From NCBI RefSeq assembly GCF_015694725.1, contig NZ_JADQDQ010000002.1:682001-746000 (forward strand): a DNA stretch of 64,000 bases, given 5' to 3'. The notes beneath the pieces were generated by a model. The model was given only the letters and a program-made list of their open reading frames with translations. It did no database searches and was not told the origin of the DNA. Positions 1,918 through 8,975 of this stretch are shown here, in pieces; position 1 is the stretch's first letter, and each line of letters starts with the position of its first letter. Source of the stretch: Hymenobacter jeongseonensis (GTDB lineage: Bacteria; Bacteroidota; Bacteroidia; Cytophagales; Hymenobacteraceae). A program made the position numbers and the translations under genes.

Positions 1918-1952
1918 TGCGCGGCTCCTTTTCCGGGAGTCGCGCTTTTTTA
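1918..1952 (+). terminator. Rho-independent terminator after the sigma factor unit
   Basis: GCGCGGCTCC, a short loop, then GGGAGTCGCGC followed by TTTTTTA. A GC-rich stem with one G-T pair and a T-run in the plus direction. Confidence 0.8.
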
Positions 1953-1964
1953 TTCCAACTTTAC

Positions 1965-1980
1965 TTAGACATTTGTCTAA
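1965..1980. promoter_or_regulatory. Perfect 16-bp palindrome, probable operator of the SdpR-like repressor
   Basis: TTAGACATTTGTCTAA is a perfect 7-2-7 palindrome ending 16 bases before the start codon at 1997. ArsR/SdpR-type winged-helix dimers bind short palindromes of this kind next to their own promoters, and SdpR is an autorepressor. The assignment as operator is inferred from position and symmetry. Confidence 0.65.
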
Positions 1981-2283: not shown

Positions 2284-2949
2284 ATGAAAAAGAACCTGCT
2301 TCCCTGGCAACTCCTGACCCTTGCGGCATTGCTCATGCCGGTGCTATACCTCGCCTATGCGTGGCCGGCGCTTCCCGAGCAAGTGCCCACGCATTTCAGC
2401 GGTTCCGGCAGCGCCAATGGCTACACTAGCCGCGGCAACATGTGGCTGATTGCGTTTGCCTTGCCAGTGGGCATTGCGGCCTTGCTTACCGTGCTGCCGC
2501 GTCTCGACCCCAAGCGACGCTTTGATAACAGCACCGTGAATTTTCAAAAGCTACGCTTGGCTCTGGTAGCCTTCGCTAGCAGCATGGCCGGCTATAGCAT
2601 CTACGCGGCCTTGCATCCGGCCGCTGGCAATGAGCGGGTTGTGCTGGTGTTGGTTGGCTTGTTTTTCGCCTTGCTAGGCAACTACTTTACCACTGTTCAA
2701 CCCAACTATTTTGTAGGAATCCGCACGCCCTGGACGTTGGAAAACTCCACGGTGTAGGCCCGGACTCACCGGGTGGGCGGTTACCTTTTCTTCGGTGCGG
2801 GCTTGCTGCTGGCGGCGCTGGCATTGGTGGTGCCCATGCAATTCATGGAGGCCGTAACGCTGGTGCTCATCATCGGAACGGTGGCTTTTTGCTACGGCTA
2901 CTCGTTTTGGGTATTCCGTCAGGAAGAAAAACTGCGGGAGGCAGCATAA
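2284..2949 (+). pseudogene. SdpI/DUF1648-type membrane protein interrupted by an in-frame TAG
   Basis: The frame opens at ATG 2284 and shows a DUF1648 segment (QVPTHFSGSGSANGY, about residues 35-49), several membrane helices and the SdpI hallmark GIRTPWTLENSTV, then meets TAG at 2755-2757. Beyond it the same frame runs 63 further codons to TAA at 2947-2949, beginning ARTHRVGGYLFFGAG and including one or two more hydrophobic helices. SdpI proteins normally read V-W-x-x-T-H-R here, so the stop sits exactly where tryptophan (TGG) is expected, a single-base change. Full length would be about 221 residues, normal for the family. Either a recent nonsense mutation, a sequencing error, or a truncated 157-residue product. 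Confidence 0.85.
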
Positions 2950-3030: not shown

Positions 3031-3060
3031 AAAGCCCCGGCCAAATGTGGCCGGGGCTTT
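3031..3060. terminator. Bidirectional terminator between convergent genes
   Basis: AAAGCCCCGGCC, a 6-base loop, GGCCGGGGCTTT. The T-run and A-run on the two sides allow use in both directions, for the SdpI-like gene (plus) and the ABC permease/M1 gene (minus). Confidence 0.85.
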
Positions 3061-7814: not shown

Positions 7815-8975
7815 TTATTTCAGAACTAGCGCCATCCGGCCAGGATTGGAGTCAGTTTGACTCGCCCATTCCAGCGTGTCGTTCAGCCACTCGGCGTAGT
7901 GTTGGGCACTGCCCTGGTCAAGGTTGTTGGGTAGCTCTTGCAGGGCCAGCTGCGCCTGGGCGCGGGCGCGGTCGGCCTCGCCGGCGAAGCGGGCCAGGGC
8001 CGCTTCGACGCGGGCAGGTAGGTCGGCGGGCGTGAAGGACGTGACCTGGGCCTGGGCCTGAAACGCACGGGCCGCCGCCAAGTCGTGCTGGTGGGCGGCG
8101 GCAAAAAAGGCCGATTCGAGCCAAACGCTGGCGTGCATGGCAGTGGGCATCTGGGCCAGTCGGTCGCGGTAGGCTGCTAGGTGGCGGCCAGCCGCTTCGG
8201 TGGCGCCCGCGTCCAGAGCCATCAGGTAGAGGTAATGGTACACGTACAGCTTGAACGGCAGCTCATCGGGCAGGGCCGCGGCAGCTTCCAGCAGCGGGCC
8301 CTGCAGCTCGCGGGGCCGCACGCCGGCGATGGAGCGCACCGTGGCCGCGAGCACTGCCAGCTCGAGCTGTCCGGCGGGGCCGTTGCGCCACAAGGCCACC
8401 GCCCGCGCCCCATCGGTGCTGAAGCCGCCGAGTTGCATGGGCACCAGCGTGAGCACGACCAATAGTCCCGAAATGCCTCCACTGGCGCCTATCGTTCCCA
8501 TCAGCACCTGTCCCGCACCCGGAGCCGCGGGCAGCAGCGCAAATAGTCCTATCGCCACGCCGGCCCACACCAAGCTGGCCAGCGGGCCACCCAGCGCAAA
8601 GGCGATGAAGCGCCGGCGCAGCTCGTGGTCGTCGGGCGGCACGCTCAGGGCCATGCCGCCGGCAGTGTTCAGGTTTTTATTCCACTCAAAACGAACCCGC
8701 CCGGCCTTCTTTTTCCACATAAACGGCCCCACGGCTAGCCAGTAGAACCTAAAGCTTTGCCAGTGCCCGGCCGCCACGTGCCCTAGCTCGTGCAGCAGCA
8801 CGGCCAGTAGCCAAGCCAGCGGCAGCGAGAGCAGTAGCCCCAGCACTTGCCCCCGGCTCCAGGCACCGCCCGGATGCGCCCAGGCCGGCCCGTACCGAGC
8901 CCCCAGCACGCCCACCCCGGCGCCCAACAGCGCACACAAGGCAAAGACAAGCGGTTTGCGGAATTTCTTCATCAA
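7815..8975 (-). CDS. M50-type membrane metalloprotease with C-terminal helical region
   Basis: 386 residues. Two N-terminal membrane helices, the second running into the zinc motif HELGHVAAGH (about residues 63-72), then further hydrophobic segments around 130-150 and 158-180, consistent with an intramembrane site-2-type protease. The second-half motif NPDG of canonical RseP/SpoIVFB is not evident. Residues 190-386 are soluble, alanine-rich and helical, resembling tetratricopeptide-like repeats. It lies 133 bases upstream of the ABC ATPase on the same strand, so co-regulation with the exporter is possible. Confidence 0.8.
   Translation of the reverse strand: MMKKFRKPLVFALCALLGAGVGVLGARYGPAWAHPGGAWSRGQVLGLLLSLPLAWLLAVLLHELGHVAAGHWQSFRFYWLAVGPFMWKKKAGRVRFEWNKNLNTAGGMALSVPPDDHELRRRFIAFALGGPLASLVWAGVAIGLFALLPAAPGAGQVLMGTIGASGGISGLLVVLTLVPMQLGGFSTDGARAVALWRNGPAGQLELAVLAATVRSIAGVRPRELQGPLLEAAAALPDELPFKLYVYHYLYLMALDAGATEAAGRHLAAYRDRLAQMPTAMHASVWLESAFFAAAHQHDLAAARAFQAQAQVTSFTPADLPARVEAALARFAGEADRARAQAQLALQELPNNLDQGSAQHYAEWLNDTLEWASQTDSNPGRMALVLK

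What the first reader, a model, noticed from the sequence alone, without database searches (positions are those of the whole stretch)
2284..2949. Nonsense codon exactly at a conserved tryptophan of an SdpI-like protein
TAG at 2755-2757 interrupts a frame that continues intact for 63 codons with family-like sequence (ARTHRVGGY). SdpI proteins have Trp at this position, so TGG to TAG explains it. The rest of the frame is undamaged, so the change is recent, an error, or tolerated. It also leaves the repressor gene beside it without its usual membrane antagonist.
Basis: partly seen in the sequence, partly recalled or inferred. Interest (0 to 1): 0.55.

Follow-up and report, generated by a model that had tools for sequence, protein, structure and literature searches.

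The report
Recently broken toxin-immunity gene in Hymenobacter
A single stop codon has recently cut short a membrane protein that normally works with the repressor gene beside it; two other species of the genus carry their own separate breaks in the same gene, which looks like ordinary loss of a dispensable gene.

Summary
TAG at 2755-2757 ends an SdpI-family frame after 157 codons; 63 family-like codons follow before TAA. The position is TGG (Trp158) in 29 of 29 fetched relatives of the genus (Hymenobacter) and in 80 of 80 named Bacteroidota loci, six of which are the same genomes. TAG is a normal stop here (94 of 243 long frames), and none of the 40 tRNAs found reads UAG. The predicted fold has six long helices and the stop removes the last two, part of the SdpR-binding half in Bacillus. 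The repressor and a conserved operator-like palindrome are intact. Two more genomes carry separate lesions in this gene. Lesions occur in 3 of 45 genomes with a strong match, against 0 of 112 for a neighbouring sigma factor and 7 of 19 for an accessory M50-peptidase-like gene. None of 46 sdpR-bearing genomes matches the SdpC toxin model. Best reading: recent, tolerated loss of an orphan immunity/signalling gene. Read-through is unlikely; sequencing error is improbable but untested.

The parts
1919..1945 (+). terminator-like hairpin between the upstream genes and the operon
   Evidence: a similar hairpin and T run at the same place in most of the relatives whose sdpR starts with ATG (by eye)
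1965..1980 (.). predicted SdpR operator, palindrome TTAGACA-TT-TGTCTAA
   Evidence: motif TTAGAYATTTDYCTAA, written after looking at the sequences, found within 1200 bases upstream of sdpI (or just after sdpR in G003 numbering) in 32 of 32 loci, the window among them; one good copy in the own genome
1997..2251 (+). sdpR, ArsR-type autorepressor of 84 aa, intact
   Evidence: NF033789 autorepressor SdpR 121.6 bits, cut-off 100; no stops in 46 of 46 genus orthologues
2284..2757 (+). truncated sdpI reading frame of 157 aa (predicted helices 1-4 and the conserved loop)
2755..2757 (+). premature TAG at the codon of Trp158
2758..2949 (+). remainder of the sdpI frame (most of helix 5 and helix 6), 63 codons and TAA; an in-frame GTG lies at 2773-2775
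3031..3060 (+). terminator-like hairpin at the end of the operon

Best explanation
The sdpR-sdpI operon of a Hymenobacter strain carries a recent nonsense mutation in sdpI. Shown: the frame stops at codon 158, where relatives have an invariant Trp; the rest of the gene, the repressor and the operator-like palindrome are intact; TAG is an ordinary stop in this genome; the same gene is broken in other ways in two other genomes of the genus. Inferred: the 157-residue product lacks helices 5-6, cannot hold SdpR at the membrane and gives no immunity, so SdpR represses its own operon permanently. Also inferred: the loss is tolerated because the gene is accessory and the genome encodes no recognisable SdpC-type toxin.
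For: TGG in 29 of 29 fetched genus relatives and 80 of 80 named loci, six shared. AlphaFold model, mean pLDDT 93.4, with six long helices (6-29, 50-74, 85-110, 118-135, 155-182, 185-220), so codon 158 lies at the start of helix 5. Different lesions: TAG at codon 54 in G071 and a one-base insertion near codon 136 in G072, whose copies are otherwise identical at 654 of 657 aligned bases. Lesions in 3 of 45 genomes with a strong match (for the 15 orthologues not fetched, intactness is read from the match table), between a conserved neighbour (0 of 112) and an accessory neighbour (7 of 19). A strong match in 45 of 120 genomes of the genus only (10 more match weakly). SdpC-model matches in 9 of 120 genomes, none of them among the 46 with sdpR. 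Residues changed only in the window number 3 of 62 after the stop, against 7 of 62 changed only in the nearest relative.
Against: Raw reads and sister strains were not available, so an error at one base cannot be excluded. Loss of SdpR binding and of immunity is by analogy with B. subtilis; nothing was measured. dN/dS is somewhat higher after the stop than before it (0.21 against 0.14 versus G073; 0.29 against 0.11 versus G007; the pair G073-G007, without the window, gives 0.18 against 0.21), which could mean some relaxed time since the stop, though the numbers are small and dS is high. The SdpC model comes from Bacillus-type toxins and may miss distant ones; a toxin of other bacteria could be the real ligand.
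Confidence: 0.82

Rival explanations
1. The TAG is a sequencing or assembly error at one base and the gene is intact.
For: Only one codon differs from an otherwise undamaged gene; raw reads were not available.
Against: The genome is rated 100% complete with 0 contamination in 28 contigs, and a strict scan of 464 kb found no other frame broken by a stop. Single lesions of the same gene in two other assemblies make a real lesion plausible, although those could also be errors.
Confidence: 0.08
2. The 157-residue protein is a functional short form, or the two halves are made separately by restarting at the GTG a few codons past the stop.
For: DUF1648 and most of the conserved loop are retained; GTG at 2773-2775 is in frame; shorter SdpI-family proteins exist (C. 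glutamicum TrpP, PMC11995493, passages; many frames of about 110-150 aa in the order-wide search).
Against: The stop falls at the start of helix 5. The short proteins described in PMC11995493 keep the C-terminal helices, the part lost here. The other two lesions lie at other places, and none of the 45 strong matches shows a split at codon 158 except this one (table).
Confidence: 0.06
3. TAG is read through as Trp or another residue.
For: The frame after the stop is intact and coding-like.
Against: TAG ends 94 of 243 long frames in 464 kb; none of the 40 tRNAs found has a CUA anticodon and the one tRNA-Trp found has CCA. The list lacks Ala-TGC and Ile-GAT, which usually lie in rRNA operons (recalled), so it is probably incomplete.
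Confidence: 0.02

Closest known systems
SdpR-SdpI of Bacillus subtilis (autorepressor and immunity/signal membrane protein)
   Same: An SdpR-subfamily repressor upstream of a protein with DUF1648 and SdpI domains; six predicted long helices in the read-through form; an operator-like palindrome in front of sdpR.
   Different: No match to the SdpC toxin model in the genome; SdpI is truncated at the start of helix 5. The Bacillus operator was not compared here.
sdpRI loci without the toxin operon in some B. subtilis strains (PMC6818787, passages)
   Same: The immunity operon is present without its toxin operon.
   Different: No lesion of sdpI is mentioned in the passages seen; here sdpI is broken.
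Recent nonsense pseudogenes of accessory bacterial genes
   Same: One lesion in an otherwise intact frame, patchy distribution, other lesions in relatives.
   Different: No essential difference; the partner repressor and its operator-like site are still conserved.

Membership tests
SdpI/YfhL family (PF13630 with DUF1648) | Match to PF13630 over the curated cut-off | tested here: met
   61.9 bits against 28.2 when read across the stop; each side of the stop alone is below the cut-off, 24.3 and 25.1 bits. No NCBIfam model matched the read-through protein or its G073 relative
SdpI/YfhL family (PF13630 with DUF1648) | N-terminal DUF1648 and six membrane helices, as in B. subtilis SdpI | tested here: inconclusive
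   DUF1648 49.6 bits; the read-through model has six long helices, but the product as it stands would have four
SdpI/YfhL family (PF13630 with DUF1648) | Immunity to an SdpC-type toxin and sequestration of SdpR | not testable with these tools
   No SdpC-model match in the genome; needs experiment
SdpR autorepressor (NF033789) | Score over the curated cut-off | tested here: met
   121.6 bits, cut-off 100
Recoded or suppressed TAG | A tRNA that reads UAG, or TAG avoided as a terminator | tested here: not met
   0 of 40 tRNAs found with anticodon CUA (list probably incomplete); TAG ends 94 of 243 long frames
Pseudogene by a recent single lesion | One disabling change, rest of the frame conserved, intact orthologues in relatives | tested here: met

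The most novel reading that the evidence does not exclude
Loss of SdpI is selected, not just tolerated. In these bacteria an intact SdpI may be a liability (for example a docking site for a foreign toxin or phage, or a cost in laboratory culture), so lineages that keep the repressor and its operator repeatedly discard the membrane partner by separate single lesions, as in G000, G071 and G072.
Probability: 0.1. Interest if true: 0.5.

Novelty: new member of a known kind. Interest (0 to 1): 0.2.

Why it matters
Little depends on this one lesion. Its use is as a natural knock-out: a strain with SdpR and its operator-like site but a broken SdpI, beside relatives with an intact pair, in a phylum (Bacteroidota) for which I know of no experimental work on this pathway (own knowledge; I ran no search on that point).

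Tried and rejected
Suppressor tRNA: not found. Reassigned TAG: rejected. A second SdpI copy as a backup: none found, one PF13630 match and one match to the protein itself. Claim that sdpI breaks more often than sdpR: not supported; 3 of 45 against 0 of 46 gives p = 0.12, and length alone would put all three lesions in sdpI with probability 0.37. Claim that sdpI is unusually prone to breakage: not supported; it breaks more than a conserved sigma factor (0 of 112, p = 0.02) but less than the M50-peptidase-like gene at 7818-8975 (7 of 19, p = 0.005). These orthologue counts were made by hand from the match tables: strong matches only, so the weak ones were dropped (10 of 55 matching genomes for sdpI, 8 of 120 for the sigma factor, 18 of 37 for the M50-like gene). 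The split or partial matches of the M50-like control were not inspected one by one and may include contig ends. No p value is corrected for relatedness. G003 has sdpR but no sdpI match; the place after its sdpR holds a 221-aa membrane-like frame with no Pfam match, which resembles SdpI only by eye, so it may be a replacement or a diverged copy; it is not counted as a lesion. Other stops in the window that passed a looser codon scan (42645, 41595, 55023, 8178) look like frames antisense to genes, by the look of their translations. Foldseek against solved structures gave nothing at E <= 0.001, and no PDB sequence relative was found at E <= 0.01. The 2010 review of the SdpI family (PMC2910880) is not held. 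A paper search for Hymenobacter, pseudogene and nonsense together found nothing. Papers: only passages of PMC11995493 and PMC6818787 were seen; the others were seen as listings.

Corrections made on the way: one search read minus-strand loci on the wrong strand and was replaced; the loose threshold was replaced; the motif was one residue short and was replaced; the Fisher counts (115 and 22) were recounted as 112 and 19.

Full report
What is there. The window lies in a genome of 5.19 Mb in 28 contigs. Its nearest named relatives are Hymenobacter (Hymenobacter sp. IS2118, H. negativus, H. arizonensis, H. rubidus, H. terricola, H. montanus), whose contig lengths equal those of six genomes that the search tool places in the same genus. 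The frame from ATG 2284 stops at TAG 2755-2757 after 157 codons; 63 sense codons follow before TAA 2947-2949. The first part matches DUF1648 and the start of PF13630 (SdpI); the part after the stop matches the rest of PF13630. Read across the stop, the domain scores 61.9 bits against a cut-off of 28.2.

The lost residue. In the 29 relatives fetched from the genus, of 44 other genomes with a strong match, the residue is Trp, codon TGG. The 80 named Bacteroidota loci kept carry TGG too; six of them are contigs of genomes already counted. In a 39-row alignment (the window read through, 22 of the 29 genus relatives and 16 of the 80 named loci) Trp158 is one of 25 invariant positions.

What the truncation removes. 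A model built on that alignment has mean pLDDT 93.4 and six long helices at 6-29, 50-74, 85-110, 118-135, 155-182 and 185-220. The stop therefore removes nearly all of helix 5 and all of helix 6. In B. [quoted passage not shown] Loss of SdpR binding is thus the expected effect, by analogy only.

Not recoded. TAG terminates 94 of 243 long coding frames in 464 kb of the same contig. Forty tRNA genes were found over the Rfam cut-off and none has a CUA anticodon; the one tRNA-Trp has CCA. The list lacks Ala-TGC and Ile-GAT, so it is probably incomplete. Programmed read-through has no support.

Recent. Compared with the nearest relative (G073, 80% identical), dN/dS is 0.14 before and 0.21 after the stop; compared with G007 it is 0.11 and 0.29; the pair G073-G007 gives 0.21 and 0.18. 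Residues changed only in the window number 6 of 157 before and 3 of 62 after, against 10 and 7 changed only in G073. There is no clear decay after the stop, but the ratios do not exclude some relaxation, and G073 is too distant (dS about 0.7) to date the change. A strict scan of 464 kb found no other coding frame broken by a stop; it does not see frameshifts or short frames.

The partner is intact. The repressor at 1997-2251 is an SdpR by the NCBI model (121.6 bits, cut-off 100). A palindrome TTAGACATTTGTCTAA lies at 1965-1980, and the motif TTAGAYATTTDYCTAA lies upstream in 32 of 32 loci examined, the window included; the motif was written after looking at the sequences. Searched in the own genome with up to two mismatches, the form TTTAGAYATTTGYCTAA has two matches: the one before sdpR and a second that is not a good palindrome. 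SdpR therefore probably controls only its own operon, and loss of SdpI should lock that operon off and do little else. That step is inference.

Repeated loss. Of 120 genomes of the genus, 55 match the protein; 45 of these match strongly over most of its length (G072 counted from its two pieces) and 10 only weakly. Of the 45, three are broken: this genome; G071, with TAG at codon 54, where its near-twin G072 and its relative G009 have TGG; and G072, with a one-base insertion near codon 136. G071 and G072 are identical at 654 of 657 aligned bases, yet broken in different ways. The 15 strong matches that were not fetched show no stop in the match table. Among the 80 named loci, one (L107, an uncultured Algibacter) has a TAA at codon 82 of the matched stretch, and one (L123) has a stop near its end. 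A PF13630 search of 390 genomes sampled from the order gave 104 genomes with a match; the only stop inside the domain was the one in this genome.

Is that many? Controls in the same 120 genomes: sdpR, 0 of 46 orthologues with a stop; the neighbouring ECF-type sigma factor, 0 of 112; the gene at 7818-8975, a Peptidase_M50 match of 28.8 bits against a cut-off of 27.2, stopped, split or partial in 7 of 19 (read from the table). The sdpI rate, 3 of 45, lies between them. This fits an accessory gene under weak constraint and does not need positive selection.

Why tolerated. Matches to the SdpC toxin model (TIGR04032, all below the curated cut-off) occur in 9 of 120 genomes, not in this genome and not in any of the 46 with sdpR (p = 0.013, uncorrected for relatedness). 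The operon here thus looks like an orphan immunity/signalling pair without its own toxin, within the reach of that model. sdpRI loci without the toxin operon are also reported in B. subtilis strains (PMC6818787, passages seen).

Verdict. Its suppressor alternative is not supported, and sequencing error remains untested but unlikely. It is an ordinary recent loss of an accessory gene; its mildly interesting side is that three of 45 genomes carry three different lesions in it while the repressor and its operator-like site stay intact.

Noticed in passing
L016 (G071) codon 54 of sdpI; L073 (G072) near codon 136: Two near-identical copies carry different disabling lesions in the same gene, an in-frame TAG and a one-base insertion.
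   Followed up: yes
window 1965-1980 and 31 other loci: A 16-base palindrome-like motif (TTAGAYATTTDYCTAA) lies upstream in all 32 loci examined: a candidate SdpR operator in Hymenobacter.
   Followed up: partly
L180 (G003) 1725-2390: sdpR is followed by a 221-aa membrane-like frame without any Pfam match, in the place where other genomes have sdpI.
   Followed up: partly
window 7818-8975: The M50-peptidase-like gene used as a control appears stopped, split or partial in 7 of 19 genomes of the genus with a strong match.
   Followed up: no
L107 (uncultured Algibacter), codon 82 of the matched stretch: Another single in-frame stop (TAA) in an otherwise intact sdpI, outside the genus.
   Followed up: no
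genomes G005, G014, G015, G016, G023, G036, G039 (and weakly G063, G085): Matches to the SdpC toxin model, all below its cut-off and up to ten in one genome (G016), occur in Hymenobacter genomes that lack this sdpR.
   Followed up: no
L072 538-614 (minus strand): ARAGORN reads a tRNA-Asp with the unusual anticodon ATC, the weakest of the 40 tRNA matches; it may be a degenerate gene.
   Followed up: no
L029 (G049) and L031 (G059): About 370 bases separate sdpR from sdpI in these two; in G059 the gap holds a weak match to the N-terminal part of SdpI, perhaps a second DUF1648 protein.
   Followed up: no
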